Source of the DNA: Chthoniobacteraceae bacterium
GTDB lineage: Bacteria; Verrucomicrobiota; Verrucomicrobiia; Chthoniobacterales; Chthoniobacteraceae
Direction: 5' to 3'
DNA: 64,000 nucleotides
Assembly: GCA_947471505.1 (NCBI GenBank)
Contig: CANIWM010000002.1
Location: 1 to 64,000 of the forward strand
Part shown: positions 5,625 through 48,758 of the stretch, piece by piece
Layout of the letters: each line of letters opens with the position of its first letter
Numbering within the stretch: the first letter of the stretch is position 1
Program-made: the position numbers and the translations under genes
Notes under the pieces: generated by a model
The model's database searches: none
The model's input: only the letters and a program-made list of their open reading frames with translations
What the model was told of the DNA's origin: nothing

Positions 5625-5711
5625 GTGAGAGCGCGAGCACGCCGCCGGTTCTGCGGCATTCTCGCTCCTGCCATTTAGCAACCACCGTACCCGCACACCC
5701 CGCAACTTCTG

Positions 5712-7453: not shown

Positions 7454-7458
7454 ATGAG
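7425..7458 (+). repeat. 34-bp direct repeat, left copy, covering the start of the antitoxin gene
   Basis: CCCCGCAGGACTTCGGGCAT continuing through TTTCCGCGCATGAG matches 8107-8140 at 30 of 34 positions in the same orientation. It includes the ATG of the antitoxin gene at 7454. The copy on the right has TTG at the equivalent place. Confidence 0.8.
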
Positions 7459-7708: not shown

Positions 7709-8082
7709 TTCTAGATACGAACGCGGTTTCGGCCTTCTTCGAGGGTGTGCCAGCGGTATGTGAAGCGGTGGGTAGGGCTGCGGCGCTCGGAGTTCCGAGT
7801 ATCGTGCTGGGAGAGTATCGCTTTGGGATGTCCGGCTCGCGCCTTCGCACGGAGTTGGAGGCGAAGCTCGGGAGGCTCCAGCGGCTTGCGGGAGTTTTGG
7901 TGGTGGATGCGGAGACTGCGATGCACTACGCGAAAATCCGGCGCGAACTAAAAGAAGCGGGCACGCCGATTCCTGAAAATGACTTGTGGATCGCGGCGCT
8001 CGTTCGTCAGCACGGGGACGAGTTGCTGAGCAATGACGGGCATTTCGACCACGTCCCCGAGCTCACCCGGATTGGGTGGTGA
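7705..8082 (+). CDS. vapC: PIN-domain toxin, VapC family
   Basis: Predicted Mg-dependent endoribonuclease (PIN fold) of a type II toxin-antitoxin system. The 125-residue protein shows the acidic active-site set: D4 in VILDTNAVSAF, a Glu in VLGEYRFGMSG, an Asp in PENDLWIAALV and the late Asp in LLSNDGHFDHV. I chose the GTG at 7705, which overlaps the antitoxin stop; a TTG at 7699 is an alternative. RNA target unknown. Confidence 0.88.
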   Translation: MILDTNAVSAFFEGVPAVCEAVGRAAALGVPSIVLGEYRFGMSGSRLRTELEAKLGRLQRLAGVLVVDAETAMHYAKIRRELKEAGTPIPENDLWIAALVRQHGDELLSNDGHFDHVPELTRIGW

Positions 8083-8106
8083 AAGAGGCGGGAAATACGG
8101 CGAACT

Positions 8107-8140
8107 CCCCGCAAGACTTTGGGCATTTTCCGAGCTTGAG
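8107..8140 (+). repeat. 34-bp direct repeat, right copy, behind the PIN toxin gene
   Basis: Second copy of the repeat at 7425-7458 (four mismatches), 25 bp after the toxin stop and about 105 bp before the next gene. The two copies bracket the whole toxin-antitoxin module. Confidence 0.8.
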
Positions 8141-8245
8141 GACGGCGAGTGCGCGCATCTGCCTCTCGTCATTTTCGCCTCGCGAAAGTAATACGTGTAA
8201 GTAATAAATTGACTCTCCCCCTTGAACCGGGAAAAAGTCCCGCCC

Positions 8246-33576: not shown

Positions 33577-35259
33577 GTGAATCCCAAACAAGCACTCAAT
33601 ATTCTCGTAGAAGCAGGCGTCGTGGACCGTTCCCAGTTCGATGACGTGATGCAGGAGGTCGCCCAGACTGGTAAGTCGCTGCCTCAGGTGATTACCGATT
33701 TCAGCTTCTGTACTGATGAAGTTTTTTACCAAACCATCGCGAACGCCATCGGGGCGGAGTACGCGAATCTCGCGGGCTTTGAGGCTCCGCCGGAAATCGT
33801 GGCGCTGCTGCCGGGCGCTCTGGCGCAGCAGCACCGAGCTTTCCCGCTGGGGATGGAGGACCACGTCATCCAGCTCGCGCTTTATGATCCGCTGAATTTG
33901 CAGGGACTGGAAGATTTGCGCTTTGCGCTGGGGAAGGATGTGCAGCCAGTGGTTGCGCCGCTTTACCAGATCGAAGACCTCATCAAAAAGCACTACGGCG
34001 CGGACTCGGGCTCGCTGGATGAGATTTTGAAGGAGCTGGGCGGGGCGATCACGTTTGGTGAGGATGGGCAGATTGATATGAAGGAGCTGGAGAACGAGGC
34101 GAATGCGGCCCCGATCATCCGCTATGTGGACCTCGTGCTGGCGCAGGCGATTCAGGACCGGGCGAGCGATATTCATTTTGAGCCGTTCGAGACGGATTTC
34201 AAAATCCGCTACCGGGTGGACGGCGCGCTTTACGAAATGGCTCCGCCGCCACGGCATCTCGCCGCGCCGGTGACTTCGCGGGTGAAGGTGATGAGCAATT
34301 TGAACATCGCGGAACGGCGAATCCCGCAGGACGGGCGCATCCAGATGCAGATCGCGGGGCGCCCGGTGGACCTTCGTGTGAGCACGCTGCCGACGCAGTT
34401 TGGCGAGTCGGTGGTGTTGCGCGTCTTGGACCGCTCGGCGGTGAAGCTGGAGATCGAGACGCTGGGGATGCCCGACTACATTTACAAATACCTCCTGCAC
34501 ACCATCGAGAAGCCGAACGGCATCTTCATCGTGACGGGGCCGACGGGCTCGGGGAAGACGACGACGCTTTACGCCTGCCTGAACAAAATCAACTCCGTGG
34601 AATCGAAGGTTCTCACCTGCGAAGACCCGGTGGAATACGACATTGATGGGATCATCCAAGTGCCGATCCAAGAGGCAATCGGACTGACTTTTGCGAGCGT
34701 GCTGCGGGCGTTCCTGCGGCAAGACCCGGACCGCATCATGGTCGGTGAAACGCGCGACAAGGAGACGGCGCAGATCGCGATTCAGGCGTCGCTGACGGGG
34801 CATCTGGTGTTCACCACGCTGCATACGAACGATGCGCCGGGCGCTGTGACACGGCTCATTGATATGGGCGTGGAGCCGTTCCTGATTTCTGCATCGCTGG
34901 AAGGTGTGCTGGGGCAGCGGCTCATGCGCCGGGTCTGCACAAGCTGCCGCCAAGAATACGAGCCGAGCGAGACAGTGCTGGCGCAGCTCGGGCTGTCTCC
35001 GATGGACATCGGGGACAAGACGTTCTTTTTCGGTAAAGGCTGCGATGTGTGTAACAACACGGGCTACAAAGGCCGCAAAGGCATCTACGAATTGCTCCAA
35101 GTCTCGGACCCGATTCGCGAGATGATCAATCAGCGCGCGCCCTCCGTGGTGCTCAAGCAGAAGGCCATCGAGCTGGGGATGATGACGCTGCGCGACGACG
35201 GACTGCGGTCCATTTACGACGGCCTGACGACCATCGAGGAAGTGCTGAAATACACGTAA
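33577..35259 (+). CDS. pilB: Type IV pilus/type II secretion assembly ATPase (PilB/GspE)
   Basis: Hexameric cytoplasmic ATPase that powers pilus or pseudopilus extension. The 560-residue protein starts with GTG at 33577 and has an N-terminal MshEN-type domain (about 1-150). The ATPase core has Walker A GPTGSGKTTT (K327), Asp box CEDPVEYDIDG, Walker B DRIMVGETRDKETA, His box TTLHTNDAPGA and a tetracysteine zinc site (CTSC, CDVC). It is followed by a pilC/gspF gene (135 bp gap) and a pseudopilin gene on the same strand. PilB and GspE cannot be separated with certainty by sequence alone. Confidence 0.93.
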   Translation: MNPKQALNILVEAGVVDRSQFDDVMQEVAQTGKSLPQVITDFSFCTDEVFYQTIANAIGAEYANLAGFEAPPEIVALLPGALAQQHRAFPLGMEDHVIQLALYDPLNLQGLEDLRFALGKDVQPVVAPLYQIEDLIKKHYGADSGSLDEILKELGGAITFGEDGQIDMKELENEANAAPIIRYVDLVLAQAIQDRASDIHFEPFETDFKIRYRVDGALYEMAPPPRHLAAPVTSRVKVMSNLNIAERRIPQDGRIQMQIAGRPVDLRVSTLPTQFGESVVLRVLDRSAVKLEIETLGMPDYIYKYLLHTIEKPNGIFIVTGPTGSGKTTTLYACLNKINSVESKVLTCEDPVEYDIDGIIQVPIQEAIGLTFASVLRAFLRQDPDRIMVGETRDKETAQIAIQASLTGHLVFTTLHTNDAPGAVTRLIDMGVEPFLISASLEGVLGQRLMRRVCTSCRQEYEPSETVLAQLGLSPMDIGDKTFFFGKGCDVCNNTGYKGRKGIYELLQVSDPIREMINQRAPSVVLKQKAIELGMMTLRDDGLRSIYDGLTTIEEVLKYT

Positions 35260-35394
35260 TGAACCACCGTGAAAAAGTCGTGAGTTTTCATTTTCCAGTC
35301 GCGAATCAAATCCAAGTGGACAACAGTCCGTACGCTCACTAACAAACCACTCCTTTAGCCTCCCAAAACCAAAACACACTTTTCTCCGAATACC

Positions 35395-36705
35395 ATGCCA
35401 CGATTTGAATACATCGCCCTCGACGCCCGAGGCACCGAAAACCGAGGGGTTCTCGAAGCCAATACACAGAACGACGTTGTCAACCAACTGCGCCAGTCCG
35501 GTTACTTCCCGACAAGCGTCGTCGTGGAAGGTCAAGGCGGCGCAAAGGTCGCGAAGAAAGGGAAGACAGCCGCGCCCGCAGCCAAGGTCGGCGCACCTGC
35601 CGCCAAGAAGGACAAAACATCCGCACTGCTCAAAAAGAGCGTCCCCAGCAAGACGCTGATGATTTTCACCCGCCAGCTCGCGACGCTGATTGATGCGGGA
35701 CTGCCCTTGCTCAAAGGGCTCGGCGTCTTGGCAAAACAGGAGAAAAACCTGACGCTCAAAGCAGCCATCAACAGCATGGCCGACGGCGTGCAGGGCGGCA
35801 GCACGTTCTCCGAGGCGATGGGGCAACACCCGAAGATTTTCAACAAGCTCTACGTCAGCATGGTGAAAGCCGGCGAGCTGGGCGGCGTGCTGGAGCTGGT
35901 GCTCACGCGTTTGGCGGAGTTCCAAGAAAAGGCGCAGAAGATCAAAAACAAGGTGAAGTCGGCGATGACGTATCCCGTGGTGGTGCTCGCCATCGCGATG
36001 CTGATCCTCGTCTTCTTGCTCACGATGATCGTGCCGAAGTTCACGACAATCTTTAAGGACATGCTCGGTGAAGACGCACAGCTCCCGGCCATCACGCGCT
36101 GGGTCATGGCGGTATCGGATGTCGTGAAGAACATGTTCTTCCCGCCGACGCTCTATTTCACCATCGTGGTCGTCGCCATCATCTACGCTGGCTGGTGGGC
36201 GATGAACAATACGCCCAAGGGCATCGAGCTTCTCGATAAGATCAAGCTGAGGGCTCCCGTCTTCGGCGACCTGATTCGCAAGAGTTCCATCGCTCGCTTC
36301 ACCCGCACACTCGGCACACTCGTGACGAGCGGCGTCCCGATTTTGCAGGCGCTCAACATCACCAAGGAGACCGCCGGTAACGTCGTCCTCGGCGACGCTA
36401 TCACAAAGGTCCACGACGCAGTGAAAGAGGGTGAGAGCATCGTGGCTCCGCTGGAAGCGAGTGGGGTGTTCCCGCCGATGGTGATTTCGATGGTTGATGT
36501 CGGCGAGGAGACGGGACAACTGCCCGAGATGCTCCTGAAGGTCGCCGAAGTGTATGACGACGAAGTGGACAACGCAGTCGAGAGTCTCACGTCCTTGCTG
36601 GAGCCGATCATGATCGTCTTCCTCGCTGTCATCGTGGGAACCATCGTAATCGCGCTGTTCATGCCGCTCATCGAGATCATCAACAAGATGCAGTCGCCAA
36701 AGTAA
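35395..36705 (+). CDS. pilC: Inner-membrane platform protein PilC/GspF
   Basis: Polytopic inner-membrane protein that links the assembly ATPase to the growing pilus. The 436-residue protein has the N-terminal MPRFEYIALDARGTENRGVL typical of the family, a Lys/Ala-rich linker (about 45-80), and two T2SSF domains starting at TLMIFTRQLATLIDAGLPLL and at RFTRTLGTLVTSGVPILQAL. The duplicated GxxFSEAM and EVYDDEVDNAVESLTSLLEP blocks are visible. Three membrane segments lie at about 195, 245 and 410. Its start is 135 bp behind pilB. Confidence 0.94.
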   Translation: MPRFEYIALDARGTENRGVLEANTQNDVVNQLRQSGYFPTSVVVEGQGGAKVAKKGKTAAPAAKVGAPAAKKDKTSALLKKSVPSKTLMIFTRQLATLIDAGLPLLKGLGVLAKQEKNLTLKAAINSMADGVQGGSTFSEAMGQHPKIFNKLYVSMVKAGELGGVLELVLTRLAEFQEKAQKIKNKVKSAMTYPVVVLAIAMLILVFLLTMIVPKFTTIFKDMLGEDAQLPAITRWVMAVSDVVKNMFFPPTLYFTIVVVAIIYAGWWAMNNTPKGIELLDKIKLRAPVFGDLIRKSSIARFTRTLGTLVTSGVPILQALNITKETAGNVVLGDAITKVHDAVKEGESIVAPLEASGVFPPMVISMVDVGEETGQLPEMLLKVAEVYDDEVDNAVESLTSLLEPIMIVFLAVIVGTIVIALFMPLIEIINKMQSPK

Positions 36706-36754
36706 CAACAAATACAGTGGCAAACTCTCTAGCCGCTCGTAACTTCCGCATACT

Positions 36755-37435
36755 ATGAACACACGCCCCACGAACCACGGCTTCACGCTTCTCGAACTCA
36801 TGACGGTCCTCCTCGTCATATCCGTCCTCACCGCAATGGTGGTGGGCGTGGCTGGCATGGTGCAGACCAAGGCCGCCAAAGCCCGTGCGAAGACGGAAAT
36901 CGCGATGCTCAGTCTGGCTGCGGATAACTACAAAAACGACAACGGCGGCTACCCGAGAACGGATGAAACGGACAAGCTCGACCCCCGCAAAGACTTCAGC
37001 CCGACCAGCAAGAAGTACGAGGAAGCAAGCCTCGCTCTCTACCGCGAACTTACCGGCGATAAGGGTCCAGACCGCGACAAGCCCGATGGCATCCCCGACG
37101 CAGATACACCCGCCTATCTCAAAGAGTTCGACCTTCGCATCGTAAAGCGTTCACAGAACACACAAGGCGGGAGCAATAAGACCGAGGTGAAGTATTTCCA
37201 AGACCCGTTCGGGTTCCCCTACGGATACTCCACCGCTGCCGCAAAGCAGGAGCAGGAATACAGTTCGACCCTTCGGAAAACTGGAACCGCCGAACGCAAA
37301 CGAGACGACGAAGCGGAAGGCTTCAATACCGTGACATTCGACCTCTGGAGCACTGCTGGGAGCAACTCCACAACGGCCCCAAGCGCTGGCAAGGACGCAT
37401 CGAACGAGCAGGCAAAGTGGATTAAGAACTGGTAG
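36755..37435 (+). CDS. Type II secretion pseudopilin / type IV pilin-like protein
   Basis: A 226-residue prepilin. The short leader MNTRPTNHG is cut before F10 (HG|FTLLELMTVLLVI), with the conserved Glu at +5 (E14). A hydrophobic helix of about 22 residues follows. The globular part resembles GspG-type major pseudopilins (SLAADNYKNDNGGYPRTDE, FQDPFGFPYGYS) but is longer, with a Ser/Thr/Lys-rich tail. It stands 49 bp behind pilC, so pilB-pilC-pilin are probably one transcript. The prepilin peptidase is not in the window. Confidence 0.88.
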   Translation: MNTRPTNHGFTLLELMTVLLVISVLTAMVVGVAGMVQTKAAKARAKTEIAMLSLAADNYKNDNGGYPRTDETDKLDPRKDFSPTSKKYEEASLALYRELTGDKGPDRDKPDGIPDADTPAYLKEFDLRIVKRSQNTQGGSNKTEVKYFQDPFGFPYGYSTAAAKQEQEYSSTLRKTGTAERKRDDEAEGFNTVTFDLWSTAGSNSTTAPSAGKDASNEQAKWIKNW

Positions 37436-37482
37436 CGCGGACAGCCCCTAATTTGCGGACGGGTGCGCGGTATTTCCCGCGC

Positions 37483-40122
37483 ATGAAAACACTCTCGTTT
37501 GCCGTCCTTATCGCCGCCGCCTCGCTCGCCGAGCAACCGGAGGATTTTCGTTTCAAAGTCGAGCGGCTCGCTGGGCCTTTTGCGCAGCCGATGGAGCTGG
37601 AGATTGCGCCGGATGGTCGCGTCTTCATTAACGAATATGGCGGGAAGCTGAAGATACTGAACCCGGCGACGAATCAGATCACGCTGGCGGGGGAGCTGAA
37701 GGTTTTCACCGGGCAGGAGAATGGGTTTCTCGGCTTCGCACTGGACCCGAAGTTTGCGGAGAACGGTTACATTTTCTGCCTCTACTCGCCGCCAGGGTTC
37801 GATGGGCAGTATCTCTCGCGCTTCACGATGAGGGGCGACACGCTGGATGTGGCCTCGGAGAAGGTGCTGCTGAAATACGACGAGCAGCGCAAGGAGTGCT
37901 GCCACCACGCGGGGAGCGTGGAGTTCGGGCCGGATGGGAATCTTTATTGGAGCGCGGGCGATAACACGCATCCGCACGGCGACAGCGAGGGCTATGCGCC
38001 GATCGATGAGCGCGAGGGGAAGGCTCCGTGGGATGCGCAGAAGTCTGCCGCCAATACCATGAGCCTCGCGGGGAAAATCAATCGCGTGCGCCCGACTGCG
38101 GACGGCGGCTATGAGATTCCGGCGGGCAATTTGTTCCCCGTCGGCACGCCGAAGACGCGCCCGGAGATTTACGCGATGGGCTGCCGGAATCCGTGGCGCA
38201 TGTCCATAGATGCAAAGACGGGCTTCGTGTATTGGGGCGAGGTGGGGCCGGATGCGGGCGGCGATGGGAAGCGCGGGCCGCGCGGCTACGATGAGATCAA
38301 TCAGGCGAAAAAGGCGGGCAATTTCGGCTGGCCGTATTTCATCGGCGATAACTTCGCTTACCCCGAATACGACTACACTACGAAGACCGTCGGGCCGCTT
38401 TTCGATGCGGCAAAGCCCATCAACGAAAGCCCGAACAACACTGGTGCTCGCGAGCTGCCGCCCGCGACGCCGGCATTCCTCTACTGGCCTTATCGCGAGC
38501 CGAAGAAGTGGCAGGAACTGGGGCAGGGAGGACGCACGGCTTGCGCCGGGCCGGTGTATTATTGCGGCATCAACAGCCCGAAGTCCGACGGCTTCCCTCA
38601 GCACTTCTCGCGGTGCTTGCTGTTCTGGGATTGGGAGCGCCCGTTCATCAAATGGGCGCGGCTCGACGGGAACTCGGACCTCGTGGAGCTGCTGCCATTT
38701 ACTAGCGCCGTCGTCGTCGCCAATAAGGACGAGGAAATCAAAAAAGTGCAGCCGCTCATTGATGCTGGAGCCACGCTCGTGAAGCGCCCGGTGGATGCGC
38801 AGTTCGACAAAGACGGCGTCCTTTACCTCCTCGACTACGGCGCGACGTGGGGCGCGAACGCTGATTCCCAGCTCCTCCGCATCCGCTACGTGCGCGGCAA
38901 TCTCCCGCCACTCGCCCGCGCCGCAGTCACGCCCGCAGCGGGCCGCGAACCGCTCACGGTCGCGCTTAGCGCCGCCGGTTCACGCGACCCGGAAAGCGGC
39001 GCGCTCACTTACGCTTGGACGCTCCAGCCCGGCGGGAAAATGCTCGGCACGGGCGAGACACTCAGCGCCTCCATCGCGGAACCCGGCAGCTACACCGTGG
39101 AGGTCCGCATCACCGACGGCAAAGGCGCGACCGCCACGGCGAGCACGCCGCTCATCGTCGGCAACTCCGCGCCCACGGTGAAGTTCGAGCAGCCGCAAGA
39201 GGGCGACTTTTTCACCACCGGAGTCGCAGTCCCGTTTCGCGTGAGCGCGACCGACTTAGAAGACGGCGCATCCAGCGCAAAGCCCGATGAATTCAGCGTC
39301 CGCACGCTCGTCAGCGCCAGCTTCGTCCGCGCCGACGGCAAAGAAGAAGCGTCCGACCCCGGCCTCTCGCGCATGAAACAAAGCGACTGCTTTAACTGCC
39401 ACGCCGTAGAGCAAAAGATCGTCGGCCCAACGCTGCTCGAAATCGCCGGAAAATATCGCGACCAACCCGGCGCGGCGGATTTGCTGAACAAGAAAGTGCG
39501 CGAAGGCGGCAGCGGAGTATGGGGGCCGATCCCGATGCTCCCGCACCCGCAGCACACGACGGACGAAGTCGCCATCATGCTCCGCTGGGTGCTCGCATTG
39601 GGAAAAGGACACAGCGGCCCCGTCGTCATCCGTGGCCTCACCGGCGAACTCGTCCCGCCCAAAGCCGACAAGCCCGGCAGCTACGTGCTCGAAGCCGTAT
39701 TCACCGACGCCGGGCGCGGCACCGCAGGCTCGCTCAGCGGCAAGGCGACCGTGGCCCTCCGCTCCCGCCGCATCGAGGCCGAGCGTGGCGAAATCACCGG
39801 GGCAAAAAACCTCGGCACCGTCGTCGGCGCAACGGACCACGGGCATCACGTGAACCTCGGGACGCTCAACCTCGAGGGCAGTAAAAGCGTCACCTTCCAC
39901 GCCAGCAGCGGCAACGTCGGCGGCAATATCGAACTCCACAGCGGCAGCCCCACCGGCGACCTCCTCGCCACCGTGGAAGTGCCGAATACCGGCGGCTGGG
40001 ACAAATTCATAGACCCCACCGCGCCACTCGCCGCCACACCCCGCGCCGCGATTTTCGCCGTCTTCGTGAACCCCGGCAAAGGCGGGCTGATGAACCTCGA
40101 TTGGGTGGAGTTTAAGCCCTAG
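37483..40122 (+). CDS. Secreted sugar/aldose dehydrogenase-like protein with PKD, cytochrome c and carbohydrate-binding regions
   Basis: An 879-residue exported protein with signal peptide MKTLSFAVLIAAASLA. Residues about 25-480 form a GSDH/YliI-like six-bladed propeller (quinoprotein glucose dehydrogenase family: ENGFLGFALDPKFAENGYIF, AGSVEFGPDGNLYWSAGDN, GYDEINQAKKAGNFGWPY). A PKD domain is at about 485-570. A class I cytochrome c domain has haem site CFNCH (C636-C639-H640) and probable axial Met in IPMLPHP. A CBM6/DUF1080-like C-terminus starts near IEAERGEITGAKNLG. The fusion suggests a self-contained periplasmic or surface oxidoreductase passing electrons from sugar to haem. The next gene starts 45 bp later. 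Confidence 0.9.
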   Translation: MKTLSFAVLIAAASLAEQPEDFRFKVERLAGPFAQPMELEIAPDGRVFINEYGGKLKILNPATNQITLAGELKVFTGQENGFLGFALDPKFAENGYIFCLYSPPGFDGQYLSRFTMRGDTLDVASEKVLLKYDEQRKECCHHAGSVEFGPDGNLYWSAGDNTHPHGDSEGYAPIDEREGKAPWDAQKSAANTMSLAGKINRVRPTADGGYEIPAGNLFPVGTPKTRPEIYAMGCRNPWRMSIDAKTGFVYWGEVGPDAGGDGKRGPRGYDEINQAKKAGNFGWPYFIGDNFAYPEYDYTTKTVGPLFDAAKPINESPNNTGARELPPATPAFLYWPYREPKKWQELGQGGRTACAGPVYYCGINSPKSDGFPQHFSRCLLFWDWERPFIKWARLDGNSDLVELLPFTSAVVVANKDEEIKKVQPLIDAGATLVKRPVDAQFDKDGVLYLLDYGATWGANADSQLLRIRYVRGNLPPLARAAVTPAAGREPLTVALSAAGSRDPESGALTYAWTLQPGGKMLGTGETLSASIAEPGSYTVEVRITDGKGATATASTPLIVGNSAPTVKFEQPQEGDFFTTGVAVPFRVSATDLEDGASSAKPDEFSVRTLVSASFVRADGKEEASDPGLSRMKQSDCFNCHAVEQKIVGPTLLEIAGKYRDQPGAADLLNKKVREGGSGVWGPIPMLPHPQHTTDEVAIMLRWVLALGKGHSGPVVIRGLTGELVPPKADKPGSYVLEAVFTDAGRGTAGSLSGKATVALRSRRIEAERGEITGAKNLGTVVGATDHGHHVNLGTLNLEGSKSVTFHASSGNVGGNIELHSGSPTGDLLATVEVPNTGGWDKFIDPTAPLAATPRAAIFAVFVNPGKGGLMNLDWVEFKP

Positions 40123-40167
40123 TTGCAGGGAGTTCCAAGGCTCGCGAGGCGGGCGGGTTCATCAGGG

Positions 40168-43100
40168 ATGAAATCCATCACCACCTCGTTGTCCGCTGCC
40201 TCTTTCCTCGTCTCGTTGTCGGCGTTCGGGGCTGAGTTTCAGCCAATTAAAGACGCATCGCTCGACCCTGCAGCGTTTGCGCAATGGGTGGATGGCGCGG
40301 CTTCTCCCATCGCGGATAAAGCCCCGACAGCAGCGGTCTGGACAGCCAAAGCGAAGCCGGATTGGCAGGGCGTGAAATTCGGCGAAGGACGCGCGACGGG
40401 CATCCGACATTTGCGGGTCGGGCTGACGGAGAGCACGGCGGTGGGAAGCGTGTTGGTGCGCGGCGGCGGGATGCTCAGTGTTTTGAAAGCGGGCGCGATT
40501 TATCCCGGTGACTTGGCGGATGATACGCAATGGATCGCAGCGGAGCGCCTCACGGATAGCGCGGTGTCGAGGGCGGAGGTGGATACGGAGGGCTACGCGC
40601 TGTGGACGCTGCCTGCGGACACGCAGACGCGGGCGCTGCGCTTCAGCCACACGCCTGCGGCGGGCGACCGGGAGACGGCAGGCTGGCTTGGCGGCGTCTG
40701 GATTTTGCCGGAGCGTCTGACCAATGTCGGGCAGCAAGCACTCGCGCAATCGGCAGCGCGTGACGACGTGAGCGCGCGGCTCGTGGATGGCTCGAACAAC
40801 CGCACTTGGGGAACGTGGGACAACGGCGAGAAGGGCTCGACGTTCCCGCTTTCGCCGGAGCATCCCGAGTTCATCACGCTCACATGGCCGAAGGCGGTTT
40901 CGCTCCAAGGCGTGTGTCTGTTATGGACGGGATTTGCGGCTGTGGAAATCGAAGCGTTCACCGGCGGCGACAATGAGAACGTGAAGGAAGCGGCGGATGC
41001 CCGCTGGCAGCGCGTCGCGAGCCGGAGCGACATGGATTCGTTGTATCCGCTCGCGCTCGGCCCGCAGTGGATCGGATGGGAAAAGCCGACGCTCACTCGC
41101 GCGCTGCGCTTGCGCATCACGAAAGGCGCGAAGTCGGGCCACTCGCATCTCGCCGACAAAGTGAAAGACGGTCGCCGCGTCTGGCTCGGCGAAATCATGG
41201 CTCTCTCACCCGTCGCGAATGGCAAGATGAGCGCGCTCATTTTGCCGAAGGCTGTCGAGGAGCCGCCACCGATTCCTGTAAAGTTCACGCTTCCCGAGGC
41301 TGGGCAGGTGACCCTCGTCATCGAGGACAAGGACGGTCGCCGCGTGCGCAATCTCGTGAGCGAGACGCCTTTTCCTGCGGGCGAAAATATCGCGTGGTGG
41401 GATGGCAGCGATGACCTTTTGCGCGACCCCGAAGCGGCGGCGCACGGCGTCTATAATATCCCCACACGGCCCGTAGCACCCGGCAAATATACAGTGCGCG
41501 GGCTGGTTCATCGCCCGCTGGCGCTGCGGTACGAGTTCAGCATCTACAACGCAGGCAAGCCCGCATGGGAGACTGCGGATAAAACCGGCTGCTGGCTCAC
41601 CACGCACACGCCGCCGACGAGCATGGCCTTCGTCCCCGGCACGCGCACGGCGGACGGACAGCCGCTCGTCTTCATGGGGGCCTTCGTCGCGGAAGGCGGG
41701 CACGGCCTGCAATGGCTGCGCGAAGACGGGACAAAACTCGGCGGGCAAGGCTGGGTCGGCGGCAACTGGACTGGTGCGCCAACGCTCACCGTCGATCTCG
41801 GCGCAAACGCCGTCGCCGAGCACCTGTGCTACGTGGGCTCCGTGTGGGAAGGCGAACTGCGGCTCACCGCGAAGACCAAGAAACTCGAAGACAAAAGCGT
41901 GCTGAAACAAAAGCTCGGCGAGGAAGTGGACCGGAAGAAAATGCAGCAGCCACCGCCGAAATTCGAGGGCTTTGACGGCGGCGAGAATATCCTCGTCCTC
42001 GGCGGAATCGCTGCGCGAGATGGACAGCTCGTATGCTCGCTCGTCCGGCAGAACGAGTTGCTCGTCGTGGACATCAAAGGCGGCACCATCGCATCGCGCA
42101 TCCCGCTCGAAAACCCACGCGGCGTGGCTTTCGACGCGCAAGGACGACTGCTCGCGCTCAGCGGGAAGACGCTCGTCCGCTTTCCCACCCTCGCCGCAAA
42201 GCCGGAGACGCTCATCGCTGTGGGGCTCGATGATCCACGCCACGTCGCGGTGGAAGCAGACGGGAGTTTTCTCATCACGGATCGCGGCGCTGCGCACCAA
42301 GTGAAACGCTTCTCCGCTGCGGGCAAAGCGGTCGGGAATATCGGAACAGCAGGAGCGCCGAGCATCGGTGCATACAACCCGCAGCACATGAATCAGCCCA
42401 ACGGTCTCGCCGTAGATTCGCAAGGGCGCGTGTGGGTCGCCGAGGCGGACAACTCGCCGCGCCGCGTGTCGCTGTGGTCGGCCAAAGGCGAGCTTGTGCG
42501 CGCATTTTACGGCCCCACGGAATACGGCGGCGGCGGGGTGCTCGACCCGAAAGAGGACACACGGTTCTTCTATAAAGGGCTGGAGTTTGCGCTCGATTGG
42601 AAGACGGGCACCGACAAGCTCACGCGAGTCTTTGCGCGTCCGAACCCGCTGCTCAGCGCGCACTCTGGATACTTCTCGCCCGACACGCCGCTGTATCCGC
42701 CGACGCAAAAAGGGCAGCGATATTTCACGAGCTGCTACACGCACAATCCGACCAATGGCGATGACGTGGCGTTCGTCTGGAGCGACGACGGCATGCAGGC
42801 GCATCTCGTCGCTGCGCTTGGTCTGGCGCAGGCGTGGCCGCTGTTGCGAAGTGAGGCGTTCCGCTCGCGCTGGCCCACTGGCACGAAGCCGGAGGAAGAG
42901 AACCCGAAGCCCGAAGCGGGAGCTATTTTCTGCTGGAGCGATGCGAACCACGACGGACAGCCACAGCCGGAAGAGGTGCAGCTTTCGCTAGGCCGGATGC
43001 GCGGAGTCACGGTGATGAACGACCTTTCGTTCGTCGTCGCGCGCATGGGCGAAAACAGCGTGCGCTTTGTCCCGACGTTCGACGGCACGACGCCGCGCTA

Positions 43101-44466
43101 CGAGCTTGCGAAGGCCGAAATCCTCGGCCCAGCGGCGGGGATCCCGCCATCGAGCGGCGGCAATCAAGCGCTGGCCGAACCCGGCGGCTGGAGCATCCTC
43201 ACGAATGCGCCCGCGCCATTTTCCCCGTACGGACTCGGCGGTTCGTTTAAGGGCGAAGCGCGATGGAGCTACCCGAGCCCTTGGCCCGGACTCCACGCCA
43301 GCCACGAAGCCGCTGTGCCGGATCGCCCTGGCATGGTCATCGGCCACACGCGGCTGCTCGGCGGCTTTGTGCAGAGCAAGGTCGGGCCGATGTTTTGTAT
43401 CAACTGCAACATGGGCAACATGACGCTGCTCACTGCCGACGGCCTCTTTGTCAGCACGCTGTTCAACGACATCCGGCTGCGCCCAAATTGGGCCGCGCCC
43501 GTCGCAACGCGCAATATGGATGTCACCGACGTTTCGCTGCACGACGAGAACTTCTGGCCGAGCATGACACAGACTGCCGATGGTCGCGTTTTCCTCATTG
43601 ATGGCGGACGCACCAGCCTCGTGCGCGTGGATGGACTGGAGACGCTGACACGCCTGCCGGACAAAGCACTCACCATCACTCCCGACGACCTGCAACGCGC
43701 GAAAGATTGGTTCACGCGCGCGGAAACGAAACGCCAGCAGCAGCGCGGCAGCGGCATCCTCGCCGTGCCCGTGCGCAGTTCCGCTCCGACTGTGGACGGT
43801 GCGCTCGACGACTGGCCTACCGCGACGAGTTGGGCGTTCATTGACCGGCGCGGGACGAAGGCAAACTTCAACAGCAACTCGCGTCCTTACGAAGTCAGCG
43901 CCGCCGTCGCACTCAGCGCGACGCACCTTTTCGCCGCATGGCGGACGACGGAAAAAGACCTCCTCACTAACAGCGGCGAAACCGCGAACGCGCTGTTCAA
44001 ACACGGCGGCTGCCTCGACATCATGCTCGCCACCGACCCCGCCGCAACACCAGAGCGCACCGCACCCGTGGCGGGCGACGAGCGACTGCTCATCACGCAA
44101 GTGAAGGGCCAGACGCGCGCCTTGCTCTTCCGCGCAAAAGTCCCCGGCAGTAACTCGCCCGTCGCATTCAGCAGCCCGTGGCGCACGATCCACTTCGACG
44201 CCGTCGAAGACGTGAGCGCGCAAGTCACCTTGGCCACTGACAAGTCCGGCAACTACGAAGTCAGCATCCCGCTCGCCGCGCTGCACTGGCAGCCAGCGCC
44301 CGGCCAGACTTACCGCGCCGACCTCGGCGTGCTCCGAGGCAGCAATAACCAAACAACCCAGCGCGTGTATTGGAGCAACAAAGCCACCGCCATCACCGCC
44401 GACGTGCCGAGCGAGGCGGAGCTGATGCCGCGACTGTGGGGAAAGTGGAAGATCGTCAGCGAGTGA
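40168..44466 (+). CDS. Very large secreted NHL-repeat protein with C-terminal CBM9/DOMON-like domain
   Basis: A 1432-residue protein with signal peptide MKSITTSLSAASFLVSLSAF. Visible parts are N-terminal discoidin-like blocks (RALRFSHTPAAGDRETA, RALRLRITKGAKSGHS), a FlgD-like immunoglobulin segment near 365-410 (QVTLVIEDKDGRRVRNLVSE), NHL repeats near 620-800 (LENPRGVAFDAQGRLLALSG, NQPNGLAVDSQGRVWVAEAD), a long middle region of unknown fold, and a CBM9/DOMON-like end from about 1195 (SAPTVDGALDDWPTATSWA). It probably acts at the cell surface on carbohydrate; no catalytic residues are recognised. It is flanked closely by two other secreted propeller genes. Confidence 0.85.
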   Translation: MKSITTSLSAASFLVSLSAFGAEFQPIKDASLDPAAFAQWVDGAASPIADKAPTAAVWTAKAKPDWQGVKFGEGRATGIRHLRVGLTESTAVGSVLVRGGGMLSVLKAGAIYPGDLADDTQWIAAERLTDSAVSRAEVDTEGYALWTLPADTQTRALRFSHTPAAGDRETAGWLGGVWILPERLTNVGQQALAQSAARDDVSARLVDGSNNRTWGTWDNGEKGSTFPLSPEHPEFITLTWPKAVSLQGVCLLWTGFAAVEIEAFTGGDNENVKEAADARWQRVASRSDMDSLYPLALGPQWIGWEKPTLTRALRLRITKGAKSGHSHLADKVKDGRRVWLGEIMALSPVANGKMSALILPKAVEEPPPIPVKFTLPEAGQVTLVIEDKDGRRVRNLVSETPFPAGENIAWWDGSDDLLRDPEAAAHGVYNIPTRPVAPGKYTVRGLVHRPLALRYEFSIYNAGKPAWETADKTGCWLTTHTPPTSMAFVPGTRTADGQPLVFMGAFVAEGGHGLQWLREDGTKLGGQGWVGGNWTGAPTLTVDLGANAVAEHLCYVGSVWEGELRLTAKTKKLEDKSVLKQKLGEEVDRKKMQQPPPKFEGFDGGENILVLGGIAARDGQLVCSLVRQNELLVVDIKGGTIASRIPLENPRGVAFDAQGRLLALSGKTLVRFPTLAAKPETLIAVGLDDPRHVAVEADGSFLITDRGAAHQVKRFSAAGKAVGNIGTAGAPSIGAYNPQHMNQPNGLAVDSQGRVWVAEADNSPRRVSLWSAKGELVRAFYGPTEYGGGGVLDPKEDTRFFYKGLEFALDWKTGTDKLTRVFARPNPLLSAHSGYFSPDTPLYPPTQKGQRYFTSCYTHNPTNGDDVAFVWSDDGMQAHLVAALGLAQAWPLLRSEAFRSRWPTGTKPEEENPKPEAGAIFCWSDANHDGQPQPEEVQLSLGRMRGVTVMNDLSFVVARMGENSVRFVPTFDGTTPRYELAKAEILGPAAGIPPSSGGNQALAEPGGWSILTNAPAPFSPYGLGGSFKGEARWSYPSPWPGLHASHEAAVPDRPGMVIGHTRLLGGFVQSKVGPMFCINCNMGNMTLLTADGLFVSTLFNDIRLRPNWAAPVATRNMDVTDVSLHDENFWPSMTQTADGRVFLIDGGRTSLVRVDGLETLTRLPDKALTITPDDLQRAKDWFTRAETKRQQQRGSGILAVPVRSSAPTVDGALDDWPTATSWAFIDRRGTKANFNSNSRPYEVSAAVALSATHLFAAWRTTEKDLLTNSGETANALFKHGGCLDIMLATDPAATPERTAPVAGDERLLITQVKGQTRALLFRAKVPGSNSPVAFSSPWRTIHFDAVEDVSAQVTLATDKSGNYEVSIPLAALHWQPAPGQTYRADLGVLRGSNNQTTQRVYWSNKATAITADVPSEAELMPRLWGKWKIVSE

Positions 44467-44507
44467 ACGCTTGCACTCGCCCTTCATCCATCGGCATCTC
44501 GTCTATT

Positions 44508-45518
44508 ATGAAACTCATCCTCGCACTCTTCGCATTCCTCTCCACCGCCCTCGCGGGCAAACTGGAAGTCATCGCTGGCGGCGGTCTTGCGGACGCCAAC
44601 GCTCCGGCGACGCAGTGCAAATTGCGCGAGCCTTTTGGCGTGGAGTTCACGCCAGACGGGCAAATGCTCATTGCCGAAATGGTGTCCGGCAATCGCGTGC
44701 TCGCGGTGGATAAGGCGGGCAAGCTCACGCTGCTCGCGGGCACGGGAAAGAAGGGATTTAGCGGTGATGGTGGCGCTGCGATGGCGGCGCAGTTTAATGG
44801 CATCCACAATCTCGCCATCGCGAAGGACGGCACTATTTACCTCGCCGATTCGTGGAACTATCGCATCCGAACGCTCGGCAAGGATGGAACAGTCACGACC
44901 TTAGCCGGAATAGGCAGCAAGGGCTTTGGCGGGGATGGTGGCGCTGCGAAGGATGCGACATTTTCCACGCTCATCCAACTCGCGCTCGACCCTGCGGGCA
45001 AGCACCTCTTCATCGCCGACATAGACAACCGCCGCATCCGCCGCATCGCGCTCGATACGCAGCTCGTCAGCACCGTCGCGGGCAACGGCAAAGGCGGCAC
45101 ACCGACGGATGGCGCGCTGGCCGTGGAGTCGCCATTGTCCGATCCGCGCGCCGTCATCCCCGCAGCGGACGGCTCCTTTTACATCCTAGAGCGCAACGGC
45201 AATGCGCTGCGCTTCGTGGATACCGCAGGGCGCATCCACACCGTCGTAAGCGGCACGCTCAACGGCCCGAAGCACGCATGTCTCGACCGCGACGGCAGCG
45301 TGATTATCGCGGACGCGGAGAGCCACGTCATCCGCCGCTTCGACCCGAAGACGAAGGAACTTACACGCGTCGTCGGCAGCGGAAAAAAGGGCGCGCTGCT
45401 CACGGACGATGCGCTGACCTCCGAACTCAATCGTCCCCACGGCGTGACCATCGCCCCCGACGGCGCGCTGATCATCACGGACAGCTACAACGACCGCGTG
45501 CTGCGGCTCGCGCGGTAA
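44508..45518 (+). CDS. Secreted NHL-repeat beta-propeller protein
   Basis: A 336-residue protein with signal peptide MKLILALFAFLSTALAG and about six NHL blades: LREPFGVEFTPDGQMLIAEM, FNGIHNLAIAKDGTIYLADS, LIQLALDPAGKHLFIADI and RPHGVTIAPDGALIITDS. The blades are separated by AGTGKKGFSGDGGAA-type loops. NHL propellers usually bind protein, RNA or sugar; here the export signal points outside the cytoplasm. It starts 41 bp after the 1432-residue protein on the same strand and its stop touches the galM stop head-on. Confidence 0.9.
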   Translation: MKLILALFAFLSTALAGKLEVIAGGGLADANAPATQCKLREPFGVEFTPDGQMLIAEMVSGNRVLAVDKAGKLTLLAGTGKKGFSGDGGAAMAAQFNGIHNLAIAKDGTIYLADSWNYRIRTLGKDGTVTTLAGIGSKGFGGDGGAAKDATFSTLIQLALDPAGKHLFIADIDNRRIRRIALDTQLVSTVAGNGKGGTPTDGALAVESPLSDPRAVIPAADGSFYILERNGNALRFVDTAGRIHTVVSGTLNGPKHACLDRDGSVIIADAESHVIRRFDPKTKELTRVVGSGKKGALLTDDALTSELNRPHGVTIAPDGALIITDSYNDRVLRLAR

Positions 45519-46547
45519 TCACCGCACGCTAAACTGATATACTGTCGTACTGCGGAATGTCTCGCCGGGGCGCAGCGTAGTAGGAGCGAAGGTGGGCTGG
45601 TTCGGGGCATCGGGGAAATGCTGCGTTTCTAGGCAGAGGCCCGCGAATTTGCCGTAGGTGCGTCCGCTTTTACCTGCGACGTTGTTGATGTAGTTGCCGG
45701 AGTAAAATTGGATGCCGGGCTCGGTCGTGGAGACACGCATGACTCGCCCGCTGCTGGCGTCATAAAGCTCGGCGGCGAACGTCTGTTTTCCTGCTACCCA
45801 GCCGTCAATAACCCAGTTGTGGTCGTAGCCGCCGCCGGGTGCGCTGGCTAGGGCGGCGATGTCTTTGCCGATGACTTTGGCCTTTTGGAAATCCATCACT
45901 TCGGCGGAAGAAGCGAACTGCCCGGTAGGGATGCTCCCGGCATCTACGGCGACGTAAGTTGCGGCGGGGAGGCGTAGCTCGTGGGCGAGAATGTCGGGGC
46001 TGGCACCGAGGTTCCAGTAAGTGTGATTCGTGAGGTTGACGATGGTGGCTTTGTCCGTCGTCGCTTCGTAGTCGAGGCGGAGTTCGTCGGCGTCGGTGAG
46101 CGTGTAGGTGACGCTGACTTTCAGCGTGCCGGGGTAACCTTCCTCGCCGTCCGGGCTTGTGTAGGTGAAGCGCGCGGAGCTTTCAGTCGTCGTCTCCAAG
46201 GTCCAATTCCGCTTGTCGAACCCGACCGCGCCGCCGTGCAGATGGTTCGCGCCGTCGTTCGTCGCGAGCGTCCATTCTTTGCCATCAATGGTGAACTTCC
46301 CCTTCGCGACACGGTTGGCAAATCGTCCGGCGGTGGCTCCGAAAAATGGGTGCGGTTGCAGCCACGGCTCGGCGGTGTCGAAGCCCAGCGTCACGTCGGC
46401 GAGCTTGCCTGCGCGGTCCGGCGCGTGCAGCTCGGTGAGCGAGGCTCCCCAAGTGATGAAGCGGGCGGTGAGGCCGTTCTTGTTGGTGATCGTGATGCGT
46501 TCGACGGCTTGACCGTCTGCGCTCTTGGCAAAAGGTTCGCGTTTCAA
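45519..46547 (-). CDS. galM: Aldose 1-epimerase (mutarotase)
   Basis: Interconverts alpha and beta anomers of hexoses such as galactose and glucose. The 342-residue protein has the GalM set: FFGATAGRFANRVAKGKF, NHLHGGAVGFDKRNW, catalytic His in VNLTNHTYWNLG and catalytic Glu in GLCLETQHFPDAPNQP. The start appears to be TTG at 46547, 9 bp after the stop of the beta-helix gene, giving KREPFAKSADGQ. No signal peptide is seen, so it is cytoplasmic. Last gene of a tight cysS-(beta-helix)-galM run. Confidence 0.93.
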   Translation of the reverse strand: MKREPFAKSADGQAVERITITNKNGLTARFITWGASLTELHAPDRAGKLADVTLGFDTAEPWLQPHPFFGATAGRFANRVAKGKFTIDGKEWTLATNDGANHLHGGAVGFDKRNWTLETTTESSARFTYTSPDGEEGYPGTLKVSVTYTLTDADELRLDYEATTDKATIVNLTNHTYWNLGASPDILAHELRLPAATYVAVDAGSIPTGQFASSAEVMDFQKAKVIGKDIAALASAPGGGYDHNWVIDGWVAGKQTFAAELYDASSGRVMRVSTTEPGIQFYSGNYINNVAGKSGRTYGKFAGLCLETQHFPDAPNQPTFAPTTLRPGETFRSTTVYQFSVR

Positions 46548-46556
46548 AGTGTGAGG

Positions 46557-47240
46557 CTATTTCCGCCGCCGCTCGATGACTTCCGAGGTGTGCTGCGTCT
46601 TCACCACGGAGTTTGCGGGTACCACGCCGCGCCAGATGGTGCCGGGGTAGATGACGCTGTCGCGCCCTACGATGCTGCCGGGATTGAGCACGGAGTTGCA
46701 GCCGACTTCCACGCGGTCGCCGAGCAGCGCACCGAACTTCTTCAGCCCGGTGGGCAGCAGCCCTTGCGGCGTGGAGATGATGATTTCCGAGTGGTCGAGC
46801 TTCACGTTGCTGAGGATCGCGCCTGCGCCGAGGTGGGCTTTGTAGCCGAGGATGCTGTCGCCGACGTAGTTGAAGTGCGGTATCTGCGCCTCGTCGAAAA
46901 TGATGCAGTTTTTCAGCTCGCACGAGTTGCCGATGACGCACCCGCTGCCGATGATCACGTTCTCGCGGATGTATGCGCCGTTGCGGATTTCGCAGCCTTC
47001 GCCGATCCACGCGGGGCCTTTGATCATCGCGCCTTGCTCCACGACAGTCCCCTTCCCCACGAACACCGCGCCGCTGATGAACGGCTTGCCCACGAGCCGC
47101 CCGAGGATTGCGGGCTTGAGGCGAAATTGCAGGTAGCTGGGAATCTGTTTCAGCGCGTCCCAAGCGTTCACGGATTGGTCGAAGAGCATCCGGTGTTCGG
47201 AGCGGTTCAGGTCGAGGAAGTCGGTCGGTGGGAAAGTCAT
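46557..47240 (-). CDS. Left-handed beta-helix (hexapeptide repeat) acyl-/sugar-nucleotide transferase-like protein
   Basis: A 227-residue protein, most of it hexapeptide repeats forming a left-handed beta-helix: VFVGKGTVVEQGAMIKGPAW, RENVIIGSGCVIGNSCEL, GDRVEVGCNSVLNPGSIVGR and DSVIYPGTIWRGVVPANSVV. It resembles the C-terminal half of GlmU-type UDP-GlcNAc pyrophosphorylase/acetyltransferases without the pyrophosphorylase domain; donor and acceptor are unknown. The ATG at 47240 was used because residues upstream in frame overlap cysS. Gaps are 8 bp to cysS and 9 bp to galM. Confidence 0.85.
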   Translation of the reverse strand: MTFPPTDFLDLNRSEHRMLFDQSVNAWDALKQIPSYLQFRLKPAILGRLVGKPFISGAVFVGKGTVVEQGAMIKGPAWIGEGCEIRNGAYIRENVIIGSGCVIGNSCELKNCIIFDEAQIPHFNYVGDSILGYKAHLGAGAILSNVKLDHSEIIISTPQGLLPTGLKKFGALLGDRVEVGCNSVLNPGSIVGRDSVIYPGTIWRGVVPANSVVKTQHTSEVIERRRK

Positions 47241-47248
47241 GGTGTGGT

Positions 47249-48649
47249 CTATTTCGGTGAAAGTTTCTGGCCGTCTTTGCTGTCCTTTACGACCCAGCCG
47301 AGCGCGGCGATGGCATCGCGCAGGCGGTCGGATGCGGCGAAGTCTTTTGCCGCGCGGACGGCCTTGCGCTCCTCCACGAGGCCGAGCACTTCGGCGGGGA
47401 TGGCCACGGCTTCGGCCTCGAAGCACAGCACCGCGTTGATGCGCTGCCACGCGGCCAGCAGCGCGGCGGCGGCGGCAGCGTCGAGCGTCCCGGCGTCGAG
47501 CGCGCGGTTGCTGTCGCGGATGAGGTCAAAGAGCTGGCCCATCGCGCCGGAGATGTTCAGGTCGTCGTCCAGCGCGGTGAAAAAACCCTCCACGAGCGAC
47601 GCCAGTTCGGCGGGCACGGCAGACGGTAAAGCGGTCGCTTTTTCCGCGAGCCGACGCGCCCATTCATCAATGCGCCCGAGCGCCGCGCGGGCACCGGGCA
47701 GCCCTTCATCGAGCGTGAAGTTCAGCGGCAAGCGGTAGTTCACCGTGATGAGCGCGTAGCGAATCTCCCGGCCCGTCCAGCCCTTCTCCACGAGGTCGCG
47801 CAGCGTGTAGAAATTGCCCGCCGACTTCGACATCTTCGCGCCGTCCACGAGGAGGTGCGCGTTGTGCAGCCACGTCCGCACGAACTTCTTCCCCGTGCAG
47901 CTTTCCGTCTGTGCGATCTCCGCTTCGTGATGGGGGAAAATGTTGTCCACCCCGCCGCAGTGAATATCAATCTCATCGCCCAGCAGCGCCGTCGCCATCG
48001 CGCTGCACTCGATGTGCCAGCCGGGCCTTCCCGGTCCCCACGGCGAATCCCAGCGCACATCGCCGTCCGCCTCGTCCCACGCTTTCCACAGCGCGAAATC
48101 GCCCACGCTTTCCTTCTCGTATTCATCGTTCGCGATGCGGCCACTCGGGCGCAGTTCGTCGAGGTTCAAATGGGCGAGCTTTCCGTAGTCGGGGAACTTG
48201 CTGATGCGGAAGTAAAGCGAACCGTCCTCCGCTTGGTAAGCGATCCCCTTTTCCACAAGGTCCGCAATCATCGCGATCATCCGCTCCACGTAATCCGTCG
48301 CCGCCGGGAACGCCTGCGCGGGCTTGATGCGCAGCGTCCCGAGGTCCGCGAAAAAGGCATCCTTAAACGTCTTCGTAAAGTCCGCCAGCCGCACGCCGAG
48401 ATTGCGGCAACCGCGAATCGTCTTGTCGTCCACATCCGTGAGATTCATCACGCGCTCCACCACATACCCGCGCGCTTCGAGATGCCGCTGGAGCAAGTCC
48501 TCGAACACGTAAGCGCGAAAGTTCCCGATGTGCGCGTAATTATACACCGTCGGCCCGCACGTATAGAGCTTCACCGCCTTCCCCGCAGGGTCGAGCGGGC
48601 AAAACGTCTCTAATTGTCGCGTGTATGTGTCGAAAAACTGAACGGGCAT
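47249..48649 (-). CDS. cysS: Cysteinyl-tRNA synthetase
   Basis: Class I aminoacyl-tRNA synthetase charging tRNA-Cys. The 466-residue length is normal. Visible are the zinc/active-site Cys in KLYTCGPTVYNYAHIGNF with the HIGN form of the HIGH motif, WHIECSAMATALLG, DIHCGGVDNIFPHHEAEIAQ and KMSKSAGNFYTLRD. A helical anticodon-binding C-terminus follows. The start is ATG at 48649 (MPVQFFDTYTRQLE); the frame runs to 48883 without homology, through the repeat region. First gene of a three-gene run with the beta-helix protein and galM. Confidence 0.97.
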   Translation of the reverse strand: MPVQFFDTYTRQLETFCPLDPAGKAVKLYTCGPTVYNYAHIGNFRAYVFEDLLQRHLEARGYVVERVMNLTDVDDKTIRGCRNLGVRLADFTKTFKDAFFADLGTLRIKPAQAFPAATDYVERMIAMIADLVEKGIAYQAEDGSLYFRISKFPDYGKLAHLNLDELRPSGRIANDEYEKESVGDFALWKAWDEADGDVRWDSPWGPGRPGWHIECSAMATALLGDEIDIHCGGVDNIFPHHEAEIAQTESCTGKKFVRTWLHNAHLLVDGAKMSKSAGNFYTLRDLVEKGWTGREIRYALITVNYRLPLNFTLDEGLPGARAALGRIDEWARRLAEKATALPSAVPAELASLVEGFFTALDDDLNISGAMGQLFDLIRDSNRALDAGTLDAAAAAALLAAWQRINAVLCFEAEAVAIPAEVLGLVEERKAVRAAKDFAASDRLRDAIAALGWVVKDSKDGQKLSPK

Positions 48650-48758
48650 GTTGTCGCGCTTGGGATGCCTGAACCAGACGGGGCAACGCGAGGAAAAAGA
48701 TGGGGGCCTACCGACATCGGGTGTGATTAAAAGTGGAATAAGCGATTGAGTCGCAATG

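What the first reader, a model, noticed from the sequence alone, without database searches (positions are those of the whole stretch)
37483..45518. Three-gene secreted locus joining a sugar-dehydrogenase-like propeller, cytochrome c, PKD, NHL and CBM9-like domains
Gaps of 45 and 41 bp and signal peptides on all three suggest one transcript for an extracellular sugar-oxidising or sugar-binding complex. The 1432-residue middle protein has a large region of no recognised fold. A mutarotase gene faces the locus.
Basis: partly seen in the sequence, partly recalled or inferred. Interest (0 to 1): 0.55.

Follow-up and report, generated by a model that had tools for sequence, protein, structure and literature searches.

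The report
Lineage-specific run of secreted proteins
Three probably secreted bacterial proteins, one of them a likely sugar-oxidising enzyme, are encoded side by side, but a close relative lacks the middle gene and the other genomes examined keep the genes apart, so they look like recent neighbours rather than one conserved machine.

Summary
The three ORFs are real: A 37483-40122 (879 aa), B 40168-44466 (1432 aa), C 44508-45518 (336 aa), gaps 45 and 41 bp. B's "region of no recognised fold" models confidently: CBM32/F5-8-like domain, NHL propeller, probable second propeller, CBM9-related C-terminus. C is an NHL protein.

"One complex" is weakly supported. A same-genus genome, collinear at about 93.6% DNA identity, has A, 12 nt, then C: no B. 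Of 41 further neighbourhoods of A, B or C homologues none holds two of the genes whole; one has a 62-residue B-like remnant beside a distant A homologue. Of 78 B-family loci none holds a C match outside B or an A match within 6 kb. The gspG-A gap (47 bp) equals the others, so spacing does not mark out three genes.

Best reading: a lineage-specific run of independently evolving secreted proteins. A mutarotase gene also lies 223 bp from an A homologue in G005, so that link may be meaningful. A is a new member of a known kind; B belongs to a widespread uncharacterised family.

The parts
37483..40122 (+). Gene A, 879 aa, probably secreted: GSDH propeller (residues 34-292 by Pfam, probably to about 470), PKD (474-554), c551-type cytochrome c (628-706, CFNCH 636-640, Met685), CBM6 (775-878)
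40168..44466 (+). Gene B, 1432 aa, probably secreted: CBM32/F5-8-like domain (about 185-347), weak FlgD-like Ig (371-430, below Pfam cut-off), NHL propeller (about 461-775), probable second propeller (about 794-1169, inferred from strand count), CBM9-related domain (1196-1432)
   Evidence: absent from collinear genome G006
40123..44506 (+). Segment present here and absent from the collinear same-genus genome G006 (B with both spacers)
   Evidence: blastn pieces end at 40122 and resume at 44507; G006 has 12 nt there
42940..42975 (+). EF-hand-like loop in B, residues 925-936 (D925, D929, E936 in 61 of 61 aligned sequences)
43294..43305 (+). HASH motif in B, residues 1043-1046 (H1043 and H1046 in 61 of 61 aligned sequences); possible metal or active site
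44508..45518 (+). Gene C, 336 aa, probably secreted NHL-repeat protein
45519..46547 (-). galM, aldose 1-epimerase (mutarotase), convergent with C
36755..37435 (+). Pseudopilin-like gene (T2SSG) 47 bp upstream of A; with T2SSF (35395-36705) and T2SSE (33577-35259) part of the same-strand run

Best explanation
This is a lineage-specific juxtaposition of three independently evolving secreted proteins, not a conserved system. A is most likely a periplasmic or extracellular quinohaemoprotein sugar dehydrogenase: the GSDH propeller oxidises an aldose (PQQ and Ca2+ by analogy with sGDH), passes electrons to its own c551-type haem, and CBM6 holds it on a polysaccharide; a neighbouring mutarotase may help supply the right anomer. 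B is a carbohydrate-binding propeller protein that entered between A and C in the window's lineage, or was lost from G006; it may be read on the same transcript. Most likely it is a polysaccharide-binding scaffold or receptor. C is a small NHL propeller protein of unknown ligand. Shown: the ORFs, domains, conserved putative catalytic and haem residues, the absence of B in G006, and the separate neighbourhoods examined elsewhere. Inferred: PQQ use, sugar oxidation, electron transfer, secretion, co-transcription, gain rather than loss of B, the mutarotase link, and the roles of B and C.
For: A: GSDH over cut-off; His141, Arg235, Asn236 and C636/C639/H640 invariant in 17 aligned sequences, the window's included, and Met685 in 16 of 17. 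His141 and Arg235-Asn236 align with His and Arg-Asn of 2ism; their equivalence to sGDH His144, Arg228, Asn229 is by motif, the roles of those from PMC6881810 (passages). Juxtaposition: G006 is collinear at 93.7 and 93.6% DNA identity on either side, with A, 12 nt, C, and its only match to B is in C (93% complete). Besides G006: 0 of 12 A, 0 of 9 B and 0 of 11 C neighbourhoods hold a second one of the three, and 0 of 9 further A neighbourhoods hold C or a whole B. Of 78 B-family loci, 0 hold C outside B and 1 holds a weak GSDH match 6.5 kb away. Window B lies in a 6-row clade with 4 Planctomycetota rows and 1 Chthoniobacter row (SH-aLRT 99), apart from the same-genus copies L116 and L162. B domains.
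Against: Short gaps without terminators allow one operon here, and a newly made operon can be functional. In G023 a 62-residue piece like B's C-terminus (42%, E 8e-8) lies 146 bp from an A homologue (35%), on the other strand, so B-like and A-like genes may have met more than once. No PqqE over cut-off was found in the 96.7%-complete genome, but no control genome had one over the cut-off either, and for PqqC no control rang: PQQ synthesis is untested in effect. The GSDH C-terminal half is divergent, so other PQQ contacts were not verified. Many B loci have short flanks (1.5 kb or more on both sides in 44 of 78, one side in 25, none in 9). The genomes are draft assemblies and a chimaeric contig is not excluded, though B matches A and C in GC (0.643, 0.639, 0.636).
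Confidence: 0.65

Rival explanations
1. The three genes are one transcript whose products form an extracellular sugar-oxidising complex: B and C capture or present sugar to A.
For: Gaps of 45 and 41 bp, same strand, hydrophobic N-termini on all three; carbohydrate-binding-type domains in A and B; no terminator or promoter match in the spacers; a B-like remnant beside a distant A homologue in G023 and galM near A homologues in G005 and G022.
Against: B absent from the collinear G006; no whole second gene in 41 other neighbourhoods or beside 78 B loci; gspG lies 47 bp upstream of A, so the run does not start at A.
Confidence: 0.18
2. B is itself an enzyme: its second propeller carries a metal or catalytic site (HASH motif, EF-hand-like loop) acting on polysaccharide, as in propeller-type polysaccharide lyases (comparison recalled, not tested).
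For: H1043, H1046, D925, D929 and E936 identical in 61 of 61 aligned sequences from several phyla; carbohydrate-binding-type domains at both ends.
Against: Invariance can be structural; no catalytic family matched in Pfam or NCBIfam, and none stands out among solved structures, but the second propeller was not searched alone.
Confidence: 0.15
3. A is a sugar-binding propeller that no longer uses PQQ, its cytochrome serving another partner.
For: Divergent C-terminal half of the GSDH domain (Pfam match stops at profile position 229 of 332); no PqqE over cut-off (without a positive control).
Against: His141, Arg235 and Asn236 invariant in 17 aligned sequences; E. coli has a PQQ-dependent dehydrogenase without making PQQ (stated in PMC6881810, passages).
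Confidence: 0.2

Closest known systems
GSDH and cytochrome c proteins with CBMs of Teredinibacter turnerae (homologues of TERTU_3803 and TERTU_2567; PMC12055684, passages read)
   Same: Secreted proteins reported to contain PQQ-type glucose/sorbosone dehydrogenase and cytochrome c domains together with CBMs
   Different: CBM2/CBM10 and CBM5/CBM10 there, CBM6 and PKD here; no sequence comparison was made
AA12 pyranose dehydrogenase CcPDH of Coprinopsis cinerea (PMC4332668, passages read)
   Same: Extracellular PQQ dehydrogenase domain + cytochrome + CBM in one chain
   Different: b-type cytochrome and CBM1; here a c-type cytochrome, PKD and CBM6
Soluble glucose dehydrogenase, Acinetobacter calcoaceticus (PDB 1c9u)
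   Same: GSDH propeller (E 6.6e-12) and, by motif, the catalytic His/Arg/Asn
   Different: No fused cytochrome, PKD or CBM (454-residue chain)
Planctomycete-specific cytochrome (PSCyt/PSD, DUF1501, DUF1552) gene clusters (PMC5615132, passages read)
   Same: Setting of some B relatives (18 of 66 loci); that paper suggests a role in carbohydrate metabolism
   Different: No such gene was matched in the window by four small HMMs
CBM9_1 (PF06452), NHL propellers (TRIM71, PknD), CBM32
   Same: Folds or profiles of single domains of B
   Different: The combination in one 1432-residue chain; Pfam and NCBIfam gave no name for it

Membership tests
sGDH / GSDH (A) | GSDH domain over curated cut-off | tested here: met
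   PF07995 124.3 bits vs 25
sGDH / GSDH (A) | Catalytic His, Arg, Asn | tested here: met
   H141, R235, N236 invariant in 17 aligned sequences and aligned with 2ism; equivalence to sGDH His144/Arg228/Asn229 by motif, roles from PMC6881810
sGDH / GSDH (A) | Other PQQ and Ca2+ contacts | not tested
   A was not modelled; C-terminal half divergent
sGDH / GSDH (A) | PQQ and Ca2+ bound, sugar oxidised | not testable with these tools
   needs purified protein
Class I cytochrome c, c551 type (A) | CxxCH and distal Met | tested here: met
   CxxCH 17 of 17, Met685 16 of 17; E 1.7e-18 to 1cor; Met as haem ligand recalled
CBM6 (A) | Domain over cut-off | tested here: met
   PF03422 58.6 bits vs 28.9; ligand binding not tested
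CBM9 (B C-terminus) | Pfam CBM9_1 match in the window's protein | tested here: not met
   no family for the window domain; 1 of 60 members at 3.5e-5; whole-genome searches found CBM9_1 only on contig C39
CBM9 (B C-terminus) | Profile homology to CBM9_1 proteins | tested here: met
   hhalign 94.9%, E 4.3e-8, 192 columns; 96.9%, E 1.4e-10, 178 columns. Filed as related, not as a member
EB_dh haem-b domain (B C-terminus) | Profile homology to PF09459 proteins | tested here: inconclusive
   hhalign 1.9%; but CBM9_1 vs EB_dh itself gives only 25.4%
NHL propeller (B, C) | NHL repeats; propeller fold | tested here: met
   PF01436 over cut-off in both; B model Z 26.4, rmsd 2.7, 248 aligned to 8j72; C not modelled
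CBM32 / F5-8 type C (B N-terminus) | Fold | tested here: met
   Z 15.9, rmsd 2.0, 127 aligned to 4zz5; no Pfam match there
Conserved three-gene complex A-B-C | Adjacency kept in relatives | tested here: not met

The most novel reading that the evidence does not exclude
B belongs to an uncharacterised family of secreted carbohydrate-active propeller proteins, spread between phyla, with a metal or catalytic site (HASH and EF-hand-like motifs) in its second propeller; it joins different cytochrome-bearing oxidation systems (planctomycete cytochromes elsewhere, a GSDH-cytochrome here and perhaps once in G023) as an exchangeable polysaccharide-handling module.
Probability: 0.15. Interest if true: 0.55.

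Novelty: new member of a known kind. Interest (0 to 1): 0.3.

Why it matters
A adds a c-type, CBM6-bearing example to GSDH-cytochrome-CBM proteins that may help oxidise polysaccharide-derived sugars. B points to a widespread uncharacterised secreted family in Planctomycetota, Verrucomicrobiota and other phyla. The G006 comparison is a warning that short gaps and shared signal peptides can suggest a complex where a close relative shows a change of neighbours.

Tried and rejected
Haem-b reading of B's C-terminus: M1286 and K1405 are nearly invariant (60 of 61 each), and I recalled Met/Lys haem ligation in ethylbenzene dehydrogenase. Profile comparison favours CBM9_1 (94.9 and 96.9%) over EB_dh (1.9%), and M1286 aligns with a nearly invariant Phe of the CBM9_1 set. 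Dropped, though not excluded (CBM9_1 vs EB_dh itself 25.4%).

Profile of the C-terminal domain against PDB sequences: one hit at E 1.8, taken as chance.

Mobile element or repeat at the junctions: a 16-nt piece of the A-B spacer occurs once in the genome at up to one mismatch and a 20-nt piece once in the window; five close B relatives align by blastn within B only. Gain here or loss in G006 is not settled.

PSCyt association: 37 hits in 554 kb within 5 kb of B (6.7 per 100 kb), 5 in 329 kb further out (1.5), 1 in 293 kb of 22 A/C contexts (0.3). The HMM seeds came from these same loci, several loci are near copies, and B extents in some loci were merged over repeats, so the near figure is inflated; PSD1 alone has 47 matches in the 6.07 Mb genome. 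Of 54 immediate same-strand neighbours only 5 match PSCyt2 and 5 PSD1. Suggestive only.

PQQ synthesis: the PqqE search gave three weak matches, as in 14 of 14 controls, none over cut-off anywhere; PqqC had no ringing control. Neither shows absence.

How common A is: 16 of 38 relatives at E <= 1e-20; 8 of 240 genomes across the phylum at E <= 1e-60, the window's included, with three candidates scored in the genomes that had more.

Rows dropped: 18 of 78 B loci (under 1250 aa) before the 61-row alignment and tree. Structure alignments used 55 of 59 and 56 of 60 usable relatives, near copies left out by me. The A alignment of 17 left out sequences under 780 aa and duplicates; one kept row (L037, 27%) is probably not an orthologue. 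Neighbourhoods: one search lists 29 rows; 5 (mostly partial) were not fetched. In one search one A context (L079) and one C context (L093) are paralogues in the window's own genome, four B contexts (L068-L071) are distant (28-35%), and some contexts are only 3-6 kb long.

Literature: the listings showed no paper on this locus or on the B family; the library holds open-licence PMC papers only.

Changed on checking: confidence in the best explanation lowered from 0.70 to 0.65 and the complex rival raised from 0.15 to 0.18, because searches found the B-like remnant in G023 and galM near A homologues in G005 and G022.
Full report
The locus. The window belongs to a 6.07 Mb, 96.7%-complete assembly in 153 contigs. 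Three + strand ORFs were confirmed: A 37483-40122, B 40168-44466 and C 44508-45518. Gaps along the run are gspF-gspG 49, gspG-A 47, A-B 45 and B-C 41 bp. galM (45519-46547, minus strand) converges on C.

Protein A. Pfam gives GSDH (34-292), PKD (474-554), Cytochrom_C below cut-off and CBM6 (775-878). By sequence the cytochrome is of c551 type (1.7e-18 to 1cor, sharing GVWGPIPM), and the propeller matches 2ism (2.1e-22) and sGDH (6.6e-12). In an alignment of 17 sequences, the window's included, His141, Arg235, Asn236 and the CxxCH are invariant and Met685 is kept in 16. In sGDH, His144 is described as the best candidate base, assisted by Ca2+ and Arg228 (PMC6881810, passages). A is therefore most likely a haem-linked sugar dehydrogenase. 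Whether this organism makes PQQ was not settled: PqqE gave only weak matches, as in all 14 controls, and the PqqC search had no ringing control. Proteins with GSDH, cytochrome c and CBM domains are in print for Teredinibacter turnerae, where the authors compare them with fungal CcPDH (PMC12055684, passages; PMC4332668, passages).

Protein B. Only NHL is over a Pfam cut-off. A profile-guided scan of genome contigs returned 78 loci, the best kept of 82 confirmed. The 61-row tree (60 relatives and the window) holds Verrucomicrobiota, Planctomycetota, Lentisphaerota, Kiritimatiellota, Armatimonadota, Acidobacteriota and one bin titled Methylococcaceae. AlphaFold2 models have mean pLDDT 87.0 (residues 22-475) and 91.2 (440-1432). 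The first contains a CBM32/F5-8-like domain (Z 15.9, rmsd 2.0, 127 residues, 4zz5). The second contains an NHL propeller (Z 26.4, rmsd 2.7, 248 residues, 8j72); about 28 further strands suggest a second propeller, not tested alone. The C-terminal domain is related to CBM9_1 (hhalign 94.9 and 96.9%) and not detectably to EB_dh (1.9%). D925, D929, E936, H1043 and H1046 are identical in 61 of 61 aligned sequences. Eleven of the 78 loci hold further B-like pieces outside the B gene.

Protein C. A probably secreted NHL protein (PF01436 over cut-off). Its best PDB match by sequence is a teneurin-like protein (9ifo). It was not modelled.

Is it a unit? In G006, of the same genus, 34756-40122 and 44507-48700 align at 93.7 and 93.6% identity (4 and 3 gaps); between A and C there are 12 nt and no B, and its only match to B is in C. 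Of 33 neighbourhoods only that of G006 holds two of the three genes; 12 A, 9 B and 11 C neighbourhoods hold one kind each. Nine further A neighbourhoods (33-37% identity) hold no C and no whole B; one, G023:C70, has a 62-residue piece like B's C-terminus (42%, E 8e-8) 146 bp from A on the other strand. Of 78 B loci none holds C outside the B gene and one has a weak GSDH match 6.5 kb away. Flanks are short in many loci. The window's B lies with four Planctomycetota rows and one Chthoniobacter row (SH-aLRT 99, quick tree), while the B copies of G002 and G003 (L116, L162) lie elsewhere; identity is 76% to L112 and 51-52% to the same-genus copies. This fits transfer into the window's lineage, but paralogy with loss, and contaminated bins, are not excluded.

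The mutarotase. galM lies beside C in the window and G006, 2.7 kb from C in G009, 223 bp from an A homologue in G005 (68% identity to the window's galM, divergent) and 2.6 kb from one in G022 (42%); the other contexts show none at the thresholds used. A mutarotase next to an aldose dehydrogenase makes chemical sense; no background rate was measured.

What B does elsewhere. PSCyt, PSD, DUF1501 or DUF1552 genes lie within 5 kb of B in 18 of 66 loci with a usable flank, at 6.7 hits per 100 kb near B against 1.5 further out and 0.3 in A/C contexts; the seeds came from the same loci, so this is inflated. Immediate neighbours are otherwise mixed. Such PSCyt genes have been described in freshwater Verrucomicrobia, some with CBMs, with a suggested role in carbohydrate metabolism (PMC5615132, passages). 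A polysaccharide-binding role for B is the most likely, with an enzymatic role open.

Verdict. The inference of one extracellular complex is weak: the trio is a local arrangement, seen whole in one genome only. A is a new member of a known kind; B is an uncharacterised but widespread family and the part that most merits follow-up.

Noticed in passing
window 8222-10714 (+) and 28854-30092 (-): Two PQQ_2 / BamB-like propeller proteins lie in the same window.
   Followed up: no
window 20871-25814 (+): 1647-residue protein with lamin tail domain and CotH kinase domain.
   Followed up: no
window 14549-16888 (-): Protein with VIT and von Willebrand factor A domains.
   Followed up: no
window 33577-37435 (+): T2SSE-, T2SSF- and T2SSG-like genes directly upstream of A at similar spacing; of the contexts only G006 shares this (a weak partial gspE match also lies about 4 kb from an A homologue in L220).
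   Followed up: partly
G000:C24 (L079, 7589-10204): A 56-58% identical paralogue of A in the same genome, preceded by a sulfatase gene.
   Followed up: partly
L218 (G005:C16) 4887-8636: galM (68% to the window's) divergent from and 223 bp away from an A homologue: a possible mutarotase-dehydrogenase pair.
   Followed up: partly
L213 (G023:C70) 7155-7346: 62-residue B-like C-terminal remnant convergent with an A homologue.
   Followed up: partly
L105, L107, L111, L123, L126, L145, L151, L156, L160, L166, L169: Further B-like pieces outside the B gene, suggesting tandem or repeated B-like genes in several phyla.
   Followed up: no
own genome and 9 same-genus genomes: 16 to 66 PSD1 (DUF1553) matches per genome, 47 in the window's genome.
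   Followed up: no
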